Assembly: GCF_900215435.1 (NCBI RefSeq)
Contig: NZ_OCMY01000001.1
Coordinates: forward strand, 868,001 to 932,000
Length of the DNA: 64,000 nucleotides
Reading direction: 5' to 3'
Origin: Candidatus Pantoea floridensis
Lineage (GTDB): Bacteria; Pseudomonadota; Gammaproteobacteria; Enterobacterales; Enterobacteriaceae
Shown here: piece by piece, positions 36,733 through 42,385 of the stretch
Layout: each line of letters opens with the position of its first letter
Numbering within the stretch: position 1 is the stretch's first letter
Notes under the pieces: generated by a model
Told to the model about the DNA's origin: nothing
The model's database searches: none
The model's input: only the letters and a program-made list of their open reading frames with translations
Translations under genes and position numbers: made by a program

Positions 36733-37017
36733 TTACAAGTAGCGGCACAGATATGAAGAAGGCTCGGCCACCTGCAAATGGAATTCGCTCTGGCCCGGTA
36801 CGCTGAAAACGGAACCGGCTTCGTACCATTTCCACTCGGTTTCGCCCGGCAGCAGCACTTTCAGTGCACCGCTGACTACCGTCATCTCTTCCGGCTGAGC
36901 AGTGCCAAAGGTGTATTCACCTTCCGCCATCACGCCGACGCTGGCACGGCCAATGGTGACGCTGTCGAAACCAATGGATTTCACTTTTCCGTCGAAATAC
37001 TCACTCGTATTGAGCAT
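36733..37017 (-). CDS. ppnP: pyrimidine/purine nucleoside phosphorylase PpnP
   Basis: Small cupin enzyme (YaiE) that phosphorolyses several nucleosides. 94 aa as in E. coli: [31 protein letters not shown] and [15 protein letters not shown] fit the cupin fold. It lies downstream of aroM on the same strand. The 104 bases between contain a 7-bp dyad GATCTGT/ACAGATC (37071-37100) that may stop aroM transcripts. Confidence 0.96.
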
Positions 37018-37121: not shown

Positions 37122-37799
37122 TTAGACGATCAATTCTGCTGCCAGCTTGGCCACCAGCACGTTCGATAACAGTACTGGAATACCCAGCATTTTCTGCAGG
37201 AAATCACGGTGCTTCTGGTGGTAACCGATGCAATCCAGTACCACCACATCCGCCCCCTGCTCCTGCAACGACAATCCTGCTTCCACCAGATCCGACTGCT
37301 CTGCCAGGTAAGGGCTGGCAACCGCAAAACACGGCGGGCAGTTCAGATTGCGCCATTTACTGGCCTGCTCGGCAATCTGCTCTTTGACCGGTACCACAAT
37401 GCCCACTTTGTGCTCCTGCACAATTGCACGCACCAGCGGCGGAATGATGCGATCCGGCTCCAGCAGCAAGGCGGATTGCGTTTTCAGCGTGCCAAACTCG
37501 CCGGTGCACAACAGCAGAATAGTGTCGTAGCCCTGCTGTTCCAGCGCGTTGATTTTTCGCTGCAATCCCTGCTCCACTTTGGGTGCCGACAGGCGCACCT
37601 GCTCGCCGCTGGTCATGCGCGAGACCAGTACTTTGTCACCCGGCGCGGGCGCGTACTGCTGTTCAACGTCGGCCAGCGTCAGGCCGTCGAGCAGTCCAGC
37701 ATGTGCCACCTGTTCAGCGGGTAAATGCTCCAGCAGCAGCGGCAGAATGTCGCTGCGCGGTGATTGACCAATCGTAAGTGTGACCAGAGACGTATTCAT
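37122..37799 (-). CDS. aroM: AroM family protein
   Basis: 225 aa, same length as E. coli AroM, a protein of unresolved function related to Asp/Glu racemase-like folds. VTLTIGQSPRSDILPLLLEH at the N-terminus; LLLCTGEFG, VGIVVPVKEQ and VVVLDCIGYHQ hold conserved Cys and acidic residues. Begins 2 bases after the DUF1177 stop, so it is the third gene of the transporter-DUF1177-aroM operon. In E. coli aroM follows aroL-yaiA instead. Confidence 0.92.
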   Translation of the reverse strand: MNTSLVTLTIGQSPRSDILPLLLEHLPAEQVAHAGLLDGLTLADVEQQYAPAPGDKVLVSRMTSGEQVRLSAPKVEQGLQRKINALEQQGYDTILLLCTGEFGTLKTQSALLLEPDRIIPPLVRAIVQEHKVGIVVPVKEQIAEQASKWRNLNCPPCFAVASPYLAEQSDLVEAGLSLQEQGADVVVLDCIGYHQKHRDFLQKMLGIPVLLSNVLVAKLAAELIV

Positions 37800-37801
37800 T
37801 A

Positions 37802-38734
37802 TCAGGCTTTCCGGTTGCGCAGGTGGCTGAGGCTACCATACAAAGATAGCAGCAGCGCATACTCTTGCGGGTCATAGAAGTGGCAGGTTTCACGCCCAAA
37901 CTCCTTCGCCACTTCTACCGCAAACTTCACCGCAGAGGCGATATCCACTTCATGGCTGGCGCCGGTACCGCAGCCCGGCACCACCGATTCGGCACAAATT
38001 GCCACGCCGACCACCGGCACATCAGTGGCGGTGGAGGGCTGCAGAATGCTGTTGAGGTGATAAACCCCGTTGCCGTAAGGCGTGATGTCCTGCGTGGTGA
38101 TCGGGAAAGTGACCGCCGGTTTGCCGCTGGTCATCTCCATAATGCGCAGCAAATCCTCCGAGACGCGCAGGATGTAGCCCTCTTTCACCGTCGGCGACAG
38201 CGCATAACCTTTGTGATTAAGGATGCGATTCCCTTTGGTGGTATCGATCGAGAGAATCGCATCGACGCCCGCAATCACTTCATTGTCATTCATGGTGATG
38301 TCGTCGCACGGCGAATCCATGAAATCGACCGGTTCGTGCGGACGGGTTGGCGCATCCGGACAGATGTGGGTGGTGATGATCACGTCACCCGCCAGCACGT
38401 CGCCTTTGGTCTGCATGTGCGCCAGCTTCAGCGCGCTGCTCACCGCCGCCACCGCGCCATCGGCATCAGAGACCATGCCAATGCGCGTTGGGCGCGCACC
38501 GATGCCGCCGAGGCGACCAATAATCCCCAGCGTCGGCGCGTTGCCGCCGTTGCTTTTGCCCTGCGCGCCGGGGATATCGATGCGCACGAAATCGGTACGC
38601 CCTTTCGGCCCGCTGACGCGTTTGGTGCTCGCCTTCACACCGGGATAAGCCGCAAAGAGATCCACGATCTGCTGACCATCAATGTAGGCGCTGTCGAGTA
38701 ACTCAAAAACCTGCAGTGTCTGCTGTAAACTCAT
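37802..38734 (-). CDS. DUF1177 protein
   Basis: 310 aa cytosolic protein of unknown function. GRLGGIGARPTRIGMVSDAD, DVIITTHICPDAPTRPHEPV and HFYDPQEYALLLSLYG are conspicuous, as is VVPGCGTGASHEVDIASA. The His, Asp and Cys residues suggest a metal- or nucleophile-dependent hydrolase, but that is inference. 15 bases after the transporter and 2 before aroM. Confidence 0.85.
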   Translation of the reverse strand: MSLQQTLQVFELLDSAYIDGQQIVDLFAAYPGVKASTKRVSGPKGRTDFVRIDIPGAQGKSNGGNAPTLGIIGRLGGIGARPTRIGMVSDADGAVAAVSSALKLAHMQTKGDVLAGDVIITTHICPDAPTRPHEPVDFMDSPCDDITMNDNEVIAGVDAILSIDTTKGNRILNHKGYALSPTVKEGYILRVSEDLLRIMEMTSGKPAVTFPITTQDITPYGNGVYHLNSILQPSTATDVPVVGVAICAESVVPGCGTGASHEVDIASAVKFAVEVAKEFGRETCHFYDPQEYALLLSLYGSLSHLRNRKA

Positions 38735-38749
38735 AATAATTTCCCTGGA

Positions 38750-40309
38750 TTATTTCTTGGTGCTGCTGACAAAAAGTGAATGGAAGAAGCTGTAGAGCGC
38801 ATCGCCCGCGATAAACCCAGCGGCCATCACCTCCATCGGAGAACGTCCACGCTCGCCCCACACGCGCAGGATCAGGATACGCAGCGCGATGCCTACCATC
38901 ACTGCCCAACCGGCAGCGGCATTGTTAATGAGCAAACCGGTTGCCAGCAGCACGCCAAGCTGACGTTTCGGCCCACCGATCAATTGAATGATGGCGCCTG
39001 GAATCGCCCACATCAGCAGGTTACCGGCGATACCCGGTTCCGCGCCGGCCTGAATCGTTTTGGCATAGACGCGCGCCACCGGCGGCAGCAGATTTTCGGC
39101 AAAGAAAATGGTGTGCGCATACCACACCACCGGAATACAGATAACAAAGGCGATCATCGCGGCGATCAGCTGAATGCGGCGGCCCCACAGCTCCTGCTGC
39201 ACATCCGCGCCGTTACCGCGCAGAATAAAGCCGGCTTTCAGGTCATAGCCCATATCGGCAAATGCCGGGCCGGTGGCGGCGGTGAAACCACACAGCAGGC
39301 ACAGCGCCAGCGGCGGAAAGCCGAGCAGGATCCCAAGAATCAGCGTGATCAGCGCCACCGCAAAGGCGGGGAACCAGCCCGAGTGCATGGCGGCGATGCC
39401 GACAATCAGTTCATGCACAAAGGCAGCAAACGCGGCGTAAACAATAAACAGCACCAGCATCGGCAGCCCCATCTGGCTCCATAATCCGCCCGCCAGCGCC
39501 AGCAGCGTGGAGATGACGATGTAACCCACGGTGCCGAAACCGAGCGAACGCTTCACTTCGCTGTCGCTGCGGCTGACGTTAACCTGATCGTTGCGGCGGC
39601 TGCGAATCACCTGCACCACCTGAATCAGCGCGACCAAACCGGCACCGACCATCACGCCGTGCGGAATATAGAGTGCGTTGATATCAATACCGGCAACCGG
39701 TTGCGCATAAGCACGCAGCAGGAACCCCAATCCGAGCATGCTCAGCGCCCAGATATTGCCGATAAATGCAGTACCAAACGCTGACATGGGGATTTTCAAC
39801 ATTGAGCCGACAATGCCGCCGACAATCCCCACCACCAGCAGCCACGCCTGACGACCGCCTTTATCACCGGCTTTGATCGCTTCGGCTGCCGCCACGCCCG
39901 GTGGCCACGCATTGCTGGCCGGGAAGACGCGCGTATCAAACAGGCGATAGAGTAAATAGGCATCCAGCAGCATCGCTGCACTGACGCCGACAAACAGCGG
40001 CAGCACCAATTGCGGTTCACCCAGCGCCCACGGCACGGCAATCGGCATCAGCAGGCTGTTGGCTGCGCCGAAGGTGGCTGAGGAGATCGCGGTCTGCGCC
40101 AGGTTTTGGACTTCTATCGAACGGTAGCGACGAAACCATTGCAGAGGAATACGCGCCAGCAGCATGGCAAACAGCGCGCCAATAATAGACGTATTGGGTG
40201 TTACCCCAATGGTGGTAATAAGCTGAACCCCAATAATGGCCCCTGCAACAGAAAGCAGAACCAGCATTAAGGCAACGCCAACACTTTTTATTGGATTATT
40301 TTGACGCAT
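38750..40309 (-). CDS. OPT/YSL-family transporter
   Basis: 519 aa inner-membrane protein with about 12-14 segments. VFPASNAWPPGVAAAEAIKA is the OPT family mark; GFTAATGPAFADMGYDLKAG and GGPKRQLGVLLATGLLINN are also typical. OPT/YSL carriers import oligopeptides or metal-chelator complexes. First gene of the operon with DUF1177 and aroM. A 13-bp dyad GCATTTAAAATGC (40341-40353) lies upstream of its start. Confidence 0.87.
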   Translation of the reverse strand: MRQNNPIKSVGVALMLVLLSVAGAIIGVQLITTIGVTPNTSIIGALFAMLLARIPLQWFRRYRSIEVQNLAQTAISSATFGAANSLLMPIAVPWALGEPQLVLPLFVGVSAAMLLDAYLLYRLFDTRVFPASNAWPPGVAAAEAIKAGDKGGRQAWLLVVGIVGGIVGSMLKIPMSAFGTAFIGNIWALSMLGLGFLLRAYAQPVAGIDINALYIPHGVMVGAGLVALIQVVQVIRSRRNDQVNVSRSDSEVKRSLGFGTVGYIVISTLLALAGGLWSQMGLPMLVLFIVYAAFAAFVHELIVGIAAMHSGWFPAFAVALITLILGILLGFPPLALCLLCGFTAATGPAFADMGYDLKAGFILRGNGADVQQELWGRRIQLIAAMIAFVICIPVVWYAHTIFFAENLLPPVARVYAKTIQAGAEPGIAGNLLMWAIPGAIIQLIGGPKRQLGVLLATGLLINNAAAGWAVMVGIALRILILRVWGERGRSPMEVMAAGFIAGDALYSFFHSLFVSSTKK

Positions 40310-40406
40310 GATATCCCCGTATTTTCACCCTGAAGAAAACGCATTTAAAATGCAACGCCCGACACGCGGGACATCCACATATTTATTTAATCGTTCCCTG
40401 ATTATT

Positions 40407-40437
40407 GAAATAAGCAGGTCCGAAGACCTGTTATTTC
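40407..40437 (-). terminator. terminator of the iclR-type gene with UUCG loop
   Basis: On the minus strand GAAATAA-CAGGTC pairs with GACCTG-CTTATTTC around a TTCG tetraloop closed by C-G, an unusually stable loop. It separates the regulator from the transporter operon. Confidence 0.75.
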
Positions 40438-40498
40438 CCTGGTGTGGCGCGAATAAACGCCTTTAAAACAAAAATAGGGTTTTCCTGTTTAGACAGGA

Positions 40499-41251
40499 TT
40501 ATGCGCCGTATTTTTCGGCCATCAGTGCAGCCGTTGCGCGTAGTTCACTGAGCAGCGTCTCCGGATAACCGGGCGCCGCCTCTTGCGATAAAAACGAGAG
40601 ACAGAGCGCGGCACTTTCACCGCGATGTTTATTGGTTACCGCAACGGCCAAAGAGCTGATGCCCGGCAGCGTCTCATTGCGCGCCAGTGCCCAGCCCTGC
40701 TGGCGAATCACAGCCAGTTCACGACATAAATCATCCAGCGTGAGCGGTGAGTTCATCGAAGCCGCCTGCCAGTGGCTGGCAAAACGGTCGCGCACCTCCT
40801 CATCACTGAGCTGTGCAAGCAGCACGCGTCCGGTCGAGGTGCCGGTTAATGAAACTCGCGTGCCCGGCGGCGTCACCAGCTGGGTAAAGAAGCGACCGTG
40901 ATACATGCGCATGACCAGCACATCGTCGCCATCCAGCACCGAGATATAGCCCATGCAGCCGCTGCTGGCTGCCAGACGCGCCATCGGTGCTGAAGCGCTA
41001 TCTACCAGCGGCGTTGACAGATAGTGACCTGCCACCGAGAGCAGAACGCGGCCAATCTGGAAGCAACGGCTCTCGGCATCACGCTCAAGCAAGCCTTCAT
41101 TTTCCATGGTTGCCAGCAGGCGCGACACCGTACTTTTTGGCAAACCCAATGCGTCAACCACCTCGGTAAAGGTGAGGCCAGGATGGCCTTGCGTCACGCC
41201 AAAGCGCTGGAACAACTTTAATACGGCAGAGGCATTTTCGAGTGTGGTCAT
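40499..41251 (-). CDS. IclR-family transcriptional regulator
   Basis: 250 aa. The N-terminal winged helix (VVDALGLPKSTVSRLLATME) and the C-terminal GAF-like effector domain (MARLAASSGCMGYISVLDGD, TSTGRVLLAQL, SLAVAVTNKH) are clear. It is next to and on the same strand as the OPT-DUF1177-aroM operon, and is the likely regulator. A 13-bp dyad upstream of its own start fits autoregulation. Confidence 0.93.
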   Translation of the reverse strand: MTTLENASAVLKLFQRFGVTQGHPGLTFTEVVDALGLPKSTVSRLLATMENEGLLERDAESRCFQIGRVLLSVAGHYLSTPLVDSASAPMARLAASSGCMGYISVLDGDDVLVMRMYHGRFFTQLVTPPGTRVSLTGTSTGRVLLAQLSDEEVRDRFASHWQAASMNSPLTLDDLCRELAVIRQQGWALARNETLPGISSLAVAVTNKHRGESAALCLSFLSQEAAPGYPETLLSELRATAALMAEKYGA

Positions 41252-41560
41252 GGCGCTTGTTTCACTATATGGAACTGAGTTCCTCTATCAAGATCTCGAA
41301 AGTAAAACGCACGGCTTTATGCGTCAAGCGCAAATTTTGAGCCGTGCCGTTGCCACTAAATTTAGGACAGCAGAAAATACGGTGGAAAAAGAAAATTGAA
41401 AGATGTTATCAGGCCAGATAAATAGTTAGCAGGAAAGTATGCAGATTTATTTGAGGATGACAGCGCGTTTGCGGAAATATAAAAAAGCATGTAGTGACAG
41501 GAGGTAATTAATTATGTGCTAGCATCCTTGCCAGCCGACGTTAATCTTTTTCGACGTTAA
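41252..41560. other. intergenic region between iclR-type gene and yaiA
   Basis: 309 bases without a long gene. It holds the IclR operator candidate (41271-41283), an AGGAGG followed by a two-codon frame ATG-TGC-TAG (41514-41522), and short direct repeats CGACGTTAATC (41536-41546, 41552-41562) that reach into the yaiA stop. Confidence 0.6.
41271..41283. promoter_or_regulatory. IclR-type operator candidate
   Basis: GGAACT-G-AGTTCC, perfect 6-bp arms, 20-32 bases upstream of the regulator's ATG. It resembles IclR-family sites (TGGAA..TTCCA class). Confidence 0.6.
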
Positions 41561-41752
41561 TCAATCTTTGCCAGCATCCTCATAGCGCTCTTTCGCATCT
41601 TGCGCTTCGGCTTCCGTTTTGTGTTCGCTAATTAGGGTATCGGGTTTGGGATGGTCGGCGCGTAATTCATACCAGGTGACGGTTTGATCCGCCGAACCCT
41701 TTTCAACCGTGACGATGCGCGCTTCACGCGGATAGGGTGGTTTAGTTGGCAT
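41561..41752 (-). CDS. yaiA: small conserved protein YaiA
   Basis: 63 aa, same length as E. coli Yai[20 protein letters not shown], then [20 protein letters not shown] and a charged end. Function unknown. In E. coli it lies between aroL and aroM; here aroL is still upstream, but three extra genes separate it from aroM. Confidence 0.92.
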
Positions 41753-41860: not shown

Positions 41861-42385
41861 TTAGCTGGCGCGGGCGAGCGAAAGCGACTGCAGTATTTGT
41901 TCCACCACGCGATCGGGCGATTGCATGGCGTTGACTTCGTGATGCGCCGTTTGACGATAAAGATGCGCACGCTCGCGCAGAATATCGCCCATCTCTTCGG
42001 CAATCGGACGCCCGGTTAAGGTGGGACGCTGCGCCGCTTCCGGCTGATGTTCCAGCCGTTCAGCCAGCACATCCGATGGCGCATTGAGCCAAATCACCTG
42101 GCCGTGTTCGCGCATAAAGCGGCAGTTGAACTCAGCCAATATCATGCCACCGCCGGTGGCGATGACGGTGTTAGGTGCAGTGACGGCGCGCAGCGATTCA
42201 GTTTCACGCGCGCGAAAACTCTCCCAGCCTTCAGACGCTACAATCTCCGCCACGCTACGCTGCGTGCTGAGTTGCAGATGGTGATCGGTATCGTTAAAGG
42301 CATAGCCCAACGCTTGCGACAGCGCCTGGCCAACAGTGGTTTTACCGCAACCGCGTGCGCCGATCAGATAGATGGGTAATGACAT
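41861..42385 (-). CDS. aroL: shikimate kinase II
   Basis: Cytosolic kinase of aromatic amino-acid synthesis, 174 aa as E. coli AroL. P-loop GARGCGKTTVGQALSQAL, shikimate residues in FNDTDHHLQ and ATGGGMILAE, and the lid arginines in RPTLTGRPIAEEM. No clear TyrR box was found in the 285 bases upstream. Confidence 0.97.
   Translation of the reverse strand: MSLPIYLIGARGCGKTTVGQALSQALGYAFNDTDHHLQLSTQRSVAEIVASEGWESFRARETESLRAVTAPNTVIATGGGMILAEFNCRFMREHGQVIWLNAPSDVLAERLEHQPEAAQRPTLTGRPIAEEMGDILRERAHLYRQTAHHEVNAMQSPDRVVEQILQSLSLARAS

What the first reader, a model, noticed from the sequence alone, without database searches (positions are those of the whole stretch)
37122..41251. aroM embedded in a DUF1177-OPT/YSL transporter-IclR cluster
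aroM is 2 bases from a DUF1177 gene, which is 15 bases from an OPT/YSL importer; an IclR regulator with its own dyad adjoins. In E. coli aroM sits next to yaiA-aroL without these partners. Here yaiA-aroL are intact but separated from aroM by exactly this block. AroM (racemase-like fold), DUF1177 (possible hydrolase) and an oligopeptide/chelate carrier could form an uptake-and-processing route, with E. coli aroM as a leftover. This would give AroM a role outside aromatic synthesis.
Basis: partly seen in the sequence, partly recalled or inferred. Interest (0 to 1): 0.78.

Follow-up and report, generated by a model that had tools for sequence, protein, structure and literature searches.

The report
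Parent operon of E. coli aroM
A four-gene block (regulator, OPT peptide-type importer, DUF1177, AroM) belongs to a gene set found in many bacteria and a haloarchaeon, and the E. coli gene aroM, named for aromatic synthesis, looks like an orphan of this block whose active site has changed.

Summary
In detail: IclR-OPT-DUF1177-aroM lies between yaiA and ppnP, with gaps of 189, 15 and 2 bases. The coupling is real. In a Paenibacillus-order sample the same 39 of 174 genomes carry DUF1177 (over cut-off) and AroM, adjacent in 39 of 39. AroM lies within 4 kb of 73 of 80 named DUF1177 loci, and an OPT or Opp transporter near 75. E. coli aroM occupies the same slot without the block, and its protein nests inside block-bearing slot AroMs. 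Rouxiella aceris keeps a scar: IclR, a 56-codon DUF1177 remnant, aroM. In the block-less slots examined AroM's near-invariant residues change: Cys98 is Ser in all 18 E. coli-type rows, in 0 of 32 block-bearing rows. Yet aroM is found over at least 80% of its length in 5372 of 5426 E. coli genomes and shows purifying selection, so it looks repurposed rather than dying. Against: 7 of 80 DUF1177 loci lack nearby AroM, and in another class AroM mostly pairs with DUF917/HyuA. Substrate and activities are untested.

The parts
40499..41251 (-). IclR-family regulator, first gene of the block
   Evidence: IclR_C 78.3 bits, HTH_IclR 51.8 bits
41271..41283 (.). dyad GGAACTGAGTTCC, predicted IclR operator
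   Evidence: conserved at -31 to -35 in 32 of 34 slot loci. Binding is inferred
41264..41291 (-). promoter-like TTGATA-16-TATAGT whose spacer holds the dyad
   Evidence: consensus match only; 6 promoter-like sites found against 3.7 expected in the region
38750..40309 (-). OPT/YSL-type transporter
   Evidence: PF03169, 97.7 bits
37802..38734 (-). DUF1177 protein, predicted hydrolase-like fold
37122..37799 (-). AroM with both racemase-type cysteines (C98, C190)
41561..41752 (-). yaiA, upstream border of the slot
41861..42385 (-). aroL, upstream border of the slot
36733..37017 (-). ppnP, downstream border of the slot

Best explanation
The block is an IclR-controlled cassette for taking up and processing a peptide-like compound: OPT imports it, DUF1177 (predicted hydrolase fold) and AroM (two-cysteine Asp/Glu/hydantoin racemase type) act on it, and cellular peptidases finish the job; free copies often encode dedicated ones (peptidase E or M29 type) and a second racemase alongside. 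It settled between yaiA and ppnP in an ancestor shared by Pantoea, Serratia, Rahnella, Rouxiella and the E. coli group. In the E. coli group IclR, OPT and DUF1177 were deleted; aroM stayed next to aroL-yaiA and its former active site changed. Shown by computation: the anatomy, co-occurrence, slot synteny, nested tree, deletion intermediates in relatives, loss of residues, purifying selection. Inferred: vertical descent of the slot, one transcript, IclR binding to the dyad, the direction of transport, the enzyme activities, and a cyclic or D/iso-aspartyl-type dipeptide as substrate (a guess from peptidase E, Asp/Glu racemase and hydantoinase-type neighbours).
For: Co-occurrence: 39 of 174 genomes for both families, the same 39, AroM directly downstream of a DUF1177 on the same strand in 39 of 39; 73 of 80 named loci, in 25 of 29 genus labels (unnamed ones count as one label); 5 of 6 Enterobacterales genomes with DUF1177 over its cut-off also have AroM, against 21 of 394 overall; 5 of 7 plasmid records, one of them haloarchaeal. 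Relic: all 52 slot AroMs form one clade (100/99), the aroM-only rows nested within block-bearing ones, and the sister group is free-cassette AroM of Proteobacteria; slot DUF1177 falls in one 37-row clade (100/100). Intermediates: L133 with aroL-IclR-aroM; L183 with IclR, 56 DUF1177 codons and aroM. Coevolution: at 29 sites conserved in 53 non-slot AroMs, 32 block-bearing rows change 1-3 sites (A13, L138, M191, I10 or L211 only), while the block-less rows change 4-14, or 18 with gaps in one split gene. Ratio of conserved-site to other-site change: median 0.10 in 496 block-bearing pairs, against row medians of 0.71-0.80 in four E. coli-type rows and L142, 0.56 in L183, 0.29 in L133.
Against: 7 of 80 DUF1177 loci lack AroM on the same strand nearby, and 5 of those 7 genomes have no AroM match at all, so DUF1177-OPT can exist without it. 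G495 has two DUF1177 copies and no AroM, and G1074 has a second DUF1177 copy without AroM beside it. In another proteobacterial class only 1 of 13 AroM genomes has DUF1177 in the stretch looked at; 11 of 13 have DUF917 and HyuA instead or as well. The slot copies lack the peptidase and racemase (0 of 29). DUF1177 shows no sequence match to any peptidase, and its fold match has TM about 0.5 with rmsd near 7. L142 branches with the E. coli clade, so its loss may not be an independent event. L133's ratio (0.29) overlaps the tail of the block-bearing pairs (95th percentile 0.27, maximum 0.48). No remnant of the block was found in any E. coli-type slot.
Confidence: 0.72

Rival explanations
1. aroM was in the yaiA-ppnP slot first, in aromatic metabolism, and IclR-OPT-DUF1177 was later inserted beside it in Pantoea and others.
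For: 15 of 21 AroM-bearing Enterobacterales genomes have aroM alone in the slot, and OPT-DUF1177 without AroM exists in Buttiauxella and Chromobacterium.
Against: AroM is paired with DUF1177 in Bacillota, a haloarchaeon and other Proteobacteria with no aroL match nearby; the aroM-only rows are nested, not basal; R. aceris carries a DUF1177 remnant beside aroM.
Confidence: 0.08
2. E. coli AroM is still an enzyme, of changed chemistry, that uses the single remaining cysteine (C190), as arylmalonate decarboxylase does with one cysteine (recalled).
For: C190 is kept in all 18 E. coli-type rows and D189 in all 19 aroM-only rows, while C98 is Ser in those 18; the best fold match of the window's AroM is arylmalonate decarboxylase; purifying selection.
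Against: The residues Q12, R15, D38, R61 and Q141 are lost together with C98, so no ancestral ligand site remains to suggest a substrate.
Confidence: 0.3
3. The block is a metal-chelate (YSL-like) importer cluster rather than a peptide route.
For: The transporter is of the OPT/YSL family, whose plant members carry metal chelates (recalled).
Against: In other cassettes OPT is replaced by an Opp-type peptide ABC system, and the recognised neighbours are peptidases and racemases. The reference set held no metal-transport proteins, so absence of metal genes was not tested.
Confidence: 0.1

Closest known systems
Cyclodipeptide-oxidase (CDO) gene clusters, PMC11055893 (Nat Commun 2024; passages read)
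   Same: That paper reports AroM, hydantoin racemases, DUF917, OPT and ABC peptide transporters as enriched in non-CDPS CDO clusters and peptidase genes in many of them, and proposes that AroM has isomerase activity.
   Different: It does not mention DUF1177 in its main text (0 occurrences). In the passages read it does not discuss the IclR-OPT-DUF1177-aroM block or the origin of E. coli aroM. I did not search for CDO genes in the loci here.
Asp/Glu/hydantoin racemase superfamily (2eq5, 3s81, 5lg5)
   Same: Predicted AroM fold (Foldseek E 1e-5 to 1e-6) and two cysteines at matching places.
   Different: 11-14% sequence identity in these fold matches; the second cysteine lies in a DCxGY-type motif; activity unknown.
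M17 and M28 metallo-aminopeptidases
   Same: Predicted DUF1177 fold is closest to these (E 1e-8 to 1e-9).
   Different: No sequence or profile match, and metal ligands could not be mapped.
E. coli K-12 aroL-yaiA-aroM-ppnP
   Same: Same slot and an aroM of the same clade.
   Different: No IclR, OPT or DUF1177; C98 and several otherwise conserved residues are replaced.

Membership tests
AroM (PF07302) | profile match over the curated cut-off | tested here: met
   258.9 bits against 23.8
Asp/Glu/hydantoin racemase superfamily | racemase fold | tested here: met
   model pLDDT 92.6; Foldseek matches with E down to 6e-7 for the superfamily. The Pfam family PF01177 itself scores 23.1, below its cut-off of 31
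Asp/Glu/hydantoin racemase superfamily | two active-site cysteines | tested here: met
   C98 in 85 of 86 and C190 in 85 of 86 block-bearing or cassette rows, L086 left out; both align with cysteines of 2eq5 (the first stretch scores only 3.0 bits)
Asp/Glu/hydantoin racemase superfamily | racemase activity | not testable with these tools
   needs purified protein
DUF1177 (PF06675) | profile match over the cut-off | tested here: met
   442 bits against 25
M17/M28-type metallopeptidase | fold | tested here: inconclusive
   E 1e-9 but TM about 0.55 and rmsd about 7; best model pLDDT 84, other four 68.5-70.8
M17/M28-type metallopeptidase | sequence or profile match to a peptidase family | tested here: not met
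   (the last against one M28 protein only)
OPT transporter (PF03169) | profile match over the cut-off | tested here: met
   97.7 bits against 25.8
IclR regulator | HTH plus IclR C-terminal domain | tested here: met
CDO gene cluster | cyclodipeptide oxidase genes present | not tested
   no CDO reference was searched

The most novel reading that the evidence does not exclude
DUF1177 is an unrecognised family of metal-dependent hydrolases that, with AroM as its dedicated racemase or epimerase and an OPT or Opp importer, forms a widespread uncharacterised pathway in bacteria and archaea for cyclic or isomerised dipeptides. AroM's ligand site has been reused at least twice: as the sensor domain of LuxR-type regulators that have lost both catalytic cysteines, and as the repurposed single-cysteine AroM of E. 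coli beside aroL.
Probability: 0.3. Interest if true: 0.8.

Novelty: new variant of a known kind. Interest (0 to 1): 0.64.

Why it matters
It gives a testable origin for an E. coli gene for which no function was found in the sources searched and whose aromatic name probably reflects only its neighbour aroL. It puts the uncharacterised family DUF1177 into a defined context, and the deletion intermediates show what happens to an enzyme's active site when its pathway is removed. If the chemistry is confirmed, a nutrient route shared by many plant- and soil-associated bacteria gains a name.

Tried and rejected
Rejected: insertion of the block beside an older aroM (scar and tree speak against it). 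Rejected: chance adjacency. Led nowhere: sequence searches of DUF1177 against solved structures and a profile comparison with one M28 protein (probability 0.3), so metal ligands were not mapped; the alignments A4 (M28/M20 type) and A5 (M17) were built but not compared with DUF1177. phmmer of OPT against the PDB found nothing. A search for a relic dyad within 300 bases upstream of aroM in 12 aroM-only slots found none better than 3 mismatches. No E. coli genome has DNA similar to DUF1177-OPT at blastn sensitivity. Literature: DUF1177 occurs in 1 paper, on DUF1996 proteins, seen as a listing only. 'AroM family protein' occurs in 1 paper, the CDO paper. Of the searches on cyclic dipeptides, one search returned only that same CDO paper, and one paper each whose title and abstract start do not concern these genes (listings only). 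In 'AROM' proved to be strain names. The 1986 aroL-aroM paper is not held; TyrR control of aroL-aroM is recalled. Statements that something was not found in print rest only and the passages.

Rows dropped: the tree left out duplicate short loci (L001, L003, L004, L097-L100), AroM hits under 90 bits (L090 among them) and, for L124-L145, under 150 bits; of the split aroM in L134 only the longer piece was used. The trees left out L001, L101 and L103 and DUF1177 hits under 150 bits. Searches defined conserved sites from 53 non-slot rows, leaving out L086 and L014. The structure alignments used the window plus 60 of the 80 DUF1177 loci and 55 AroM rows, chosen by hand for diversity. L182 and L183 were added after the tree. 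One search tested 7 block-less rows of 22. The 80 named loci are the closest of at least 591 relatives found, so they lean towards near kin of the window's protein.
Full report
WHAT IS THERE. The minus strand of the window reads aroL (42385-41861), yaiA (41752-41561), IclR (41251-40499), OPT (40309-38750), DUF1177 (38734-37802), AroM (37799-37122), ppnP (37017-36733). The genome is a Pantoea by nearest named matches (98% DUF1177 identity to Pantoea sp. SOD02 and P. endophytica). Of the three other same-genus genomes listed, one (G464) has both families and two (G178, G493) have neither.

IS THE ASSOCIATION REAL. Both families are rare: DUF1177 in 1 of 249 and AroM in 4 of 249 Pseudomonadota genomes, the own genome included; in Enterobacterales 7 of 394 (6 over the cut-off) and 22 of 394 (21 over the cut-off). 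Five of the 6 Enterobacterales genomes with DUF1177 over the cut-off also have AroM; the sixth, G495, has two DUF1177 copies and no AroM. In a sample from the order of a Paenibacillus genome, 39 of 174 genomes have DUF1177 over the cut-off (one further genome has a weak match) and the same 39 have AroM, directly downstream of a DUF1177 on the same strand in 39 of 39. In one of them (G1038) DUF1177 is in two pieces, and another (G1074) has a second DUF1177 copy without AroM beside it. The hypergeometric figure (about 1e-39) ignores relatedness and is not a real probability. Among 80 named DUF1177 loci (the closest 80 of at least 591), AroM lies within 4 kb on the same strand in 73, OPT in 68, OPT or a strong Opp match (within 9 kb) in 75, IclR in 55. 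In plasmids 5 of 7 DUF1177 records have AroM next to it. Klebsiella pRHB26-C08_2 and Sodalis pHS1 carry IclR-OPT-DUF1177-AroM-PepE-racemase, and the haloarchaeon Salinigranum carries Opp, DUF917, DUF1177, AroM, an M29-type aminopeptidase and a racemase in this order. The two Planococcus records have no AroM hit; in the one displayed DUF1177 lies among hydantoinase-type genes.

THE REVERSE TEST. Starting from AroM rather than DUF1177 in another proteobacterial class (that of genome G139, unnamed), AroM is in 13 of 337 genomes. In the stretches looked at, 11 of these 13 have it beside DUF917 (S-Me-THD) and HyuA (hydantoinase/oxoprolinase) genes; two of the 11 (G774, G866) have only the fused form described below. 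One of the 11 (G797, L178) also has DUF1177 and PepE. Two of 13 have neither (G656, and G650 with a weak AroM match). So AroM's wider setting is hydantoinase- and peptide-type clusters, and DUF1177 is one partner among others. The only shikimate-gene neighbourhood I met is the Enterobacterales slot.

THE E. COLI GENE. E. coli K-12, Salmonella, Enterobacter and Klebsiella records have aroL-yaiA-aroM-ppnP. Of the 21 AroM-bearing Enterobacterales genomes over the cut-off, 4 have the block in the slot (own genome included), 15 have aroM alone, 1 has IclR plus aroM (G454, L133), and 1 carries a free cassette with PepE (G580) (yaiA was not recognised in L126 and L133). In the AroM tree (107 rows) all 52 slot rows form one clade (100/99). 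The 19 aroM-only rows form one group (99/94) inside it, beside Pantoea; L133 sits with Rahnella (100/95). The sister of the slot clade is free-cassette AroM from Proteobacteria, and the Bacillota cassettes lie outside. The root is at the midpoint, and the tool flagged several long-branch cassette rows. Slot DUF1177 falls in one 37-row clade (100/100) of 33 slot rows and 4 rows from elsewhere, namely Chromobacterium (2), Edaphovirga and Buttiauxella, so the two genes largely share a history.

DELETION INTERMEDIATES. L133: aroL, IclR, aroM, ppnP, with no OPT or DUF1177 found by tblastn. Rouxiella aceris (L183): aroL, yaiA, a full-length IclR match, a 56-codon stretch matching DUF1177 residues 253-308 at 71% identity, then aroM and ppnP. 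No remnant was found in the other 20 block-less slots searched, the E. coli type included. Serratia sp. Ag1 (L043) shows the opposite loss: block kept, aroM gone, and no AroM match in its genome.

WHAT HAPPENS TO AROM. At 29 positions conserved in at least 95% of 53 non-slot cassette AroMs, the 32 block-bearing slot rows change 1-3 positions, always among A13, L138, M191, I10 and L211. The 18 E. coli-type rows of the tree, and Buttiauxella (L182), change 13-14, apart from the one split gene (18 with gaps counted): Q12, R15, G35, D38, R61, C98 and others. C98 is Ser in all 18 and in L182, while C190 is kept. L142 changes 8, including C190 to Ser; L183 changes 8, including C98 to Gly and R61 to Cys; L133 changes 4, including R61 and T99, and keeps both cysteines. 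The ratio of change at conserved sites to change elsewhere has median 0.10 over 496 block-bearing pairs (95th percentile 0.27, maximum 0.48). Row medians are 0.71-0.80 for E. coli, Salmonella, Enterobacter, Buttiauxella (L182) and L142, 0.56 for L183, and 0.29 for L133 (7 block-less rows tested). The pairs are not independent, and L133 overlaps the upper tail. G454 and Rahnella are close in RdgC (99% identical), PpnP (97%) and AroL (90%), but AroM is only 72% identical.

NOT A DEAD GENE. Pairwise dN/dS of aroM within the E. coli type is 0.036-0.105 in the five pairs computed, against 0.051-0.094 for aroL in the same pairs; two of the five have dS above 2 for aroM and are saturated, the other three give 0.061-0.095. 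aroM is matched in 5375 of 5426 complete E. coli genomes, over at least 80% of its length in 5372 (frames not checked). The relic is therefore retained, most likely for something else.

FOLDS AND CHEMISTRY. AroM models at pLDDT 92.6 and matches arylmalonate decarboxylase, aspartate racemase, allantoin racemase and hydantoin racemase. Its profile aligns C98 and C190 to cysteines of hydantoin racemase 2eq5, the first stretch very weakly. DUF1177 models at pLDDT 84 (the other four models 68.5-70.8) and matches M17 and M28 aminopeptidases by fold only, with no sequence support. Hydrolase is thus a lean, not a result. Peptidase E or M29-type genes accompany 39 of 51 non-slot loci and 0 of 29 slot loci; a further Asp/Glu-type racemase accompanies 24 of 51 and 0 of 29. 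The slot version must rely on unlinked enzymes if the pathway is the same; I could not search the own genome for them.

REGULATION. The dyad GGAACNNNGTTCC occurs 31-35 bases before the IclR start in 32 of 34 slot loci, including both intermediates. In the window it fills the spacer of a promoter-like site. No copy with fewer than 2 mismatches lies within 200 bases upstream of OPT in the slot loci tested. Of six free cassettes 2 have it exactly. This fits autoregulation by IclR from a single promoter for the block, but there are no transcript or binding data here.

AROM AS A SENSOR. In Neorhizobium (L013:6928-7815) and Shinella (L014:7995-8942) an AroM domain is fused to a LuxR-type HTH. Seven of the 13 AroM genomes of the G139 class carry such a fusion (L171, L172, L173, L175, L178, L179, L180). 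These seven and Shinella lack cysteine at both positions, yet all eight keep R15, D38, G100 and Q141; the non-fused AroMs in the same loci (L171, L172, L173, L175, L178) keep both cysteines. The cysteines of the Neorhizobium fusion were not examined. This suggests that AroM binds the pathway compound and that the fusions sense it without turning it over.

COMPARED WITH WHAT IS KNOWN. PMC11055893 (passages read) already reports AroM, hydantoin racemases, DUF917, OPT and peptide ABC transporters as enriched in non-CDPS cyclodipeptide-oxidase clusters, with peptidases in many, and suggests isomerase activity for AroM. Its main text does not mention DUF1177. Within the searches made (listings) I found nothing on the IclR-OPT-DUF1177-aroM block or on the origin of E. 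coli aroM; most subscription papers are not held.

VERDICT. The added results are the deletion scar in a relative, the change of active-site residues where the partners are gone, the retention of the orphan under selection, and the AroM-HTH fusions. Substrate and activity remain open.

Noticed in passing
L013:6928-7815, L014:7995-8942, L171-L173, L175, L178-L180: AroM domains fused to a LuxR-type HTH (GerE), apparently sensor versions of AroM; the Shinella one and the seven of the G139 class lack both cysteines.
   Followed up: partly
L183:6783-8667: Rouxiella aceris slot with a full-length IclR match, a 56-codon DUF1177 remnant and an aroM with altered conserved residues; the same genome has a second OPT-DUF1177 and a second, distant AroM (L184).
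   Followed up: yes
L006:1-13453: The full cassette on a conjugative Klebsiella plasmid lies between transposase genes (IS66, IS110, IS5 types), so it may be mobile.
   Followed up: no
L134 (G474): An E. coli-type aroM split into two open pieces, a possible recent loss.
   Followed up: no
L041, L042, L045, L053, L058: DUF1177 loci without AroM nearby (OPT present in four of the five). DUF1177 of Buttiauxella, both Chromobacterium and Edaphovirga branches inside the slot clade, as if transferred out without aroM.
   Followed up: partly
L008:7322-7972: The small gene before DUF1177 in the Niallia cassette is an S-Me-THD (DUF917) C-terminal domain on its own; relatives of it lie at the same place in other Bacillota cassettes.
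   Followed up: no
window 40415-40430: A short hairpin (CAGGTCTTCGGACCTG) lies between IclR and OPT; possible attenuator, consensus match only.
   Followed up: no
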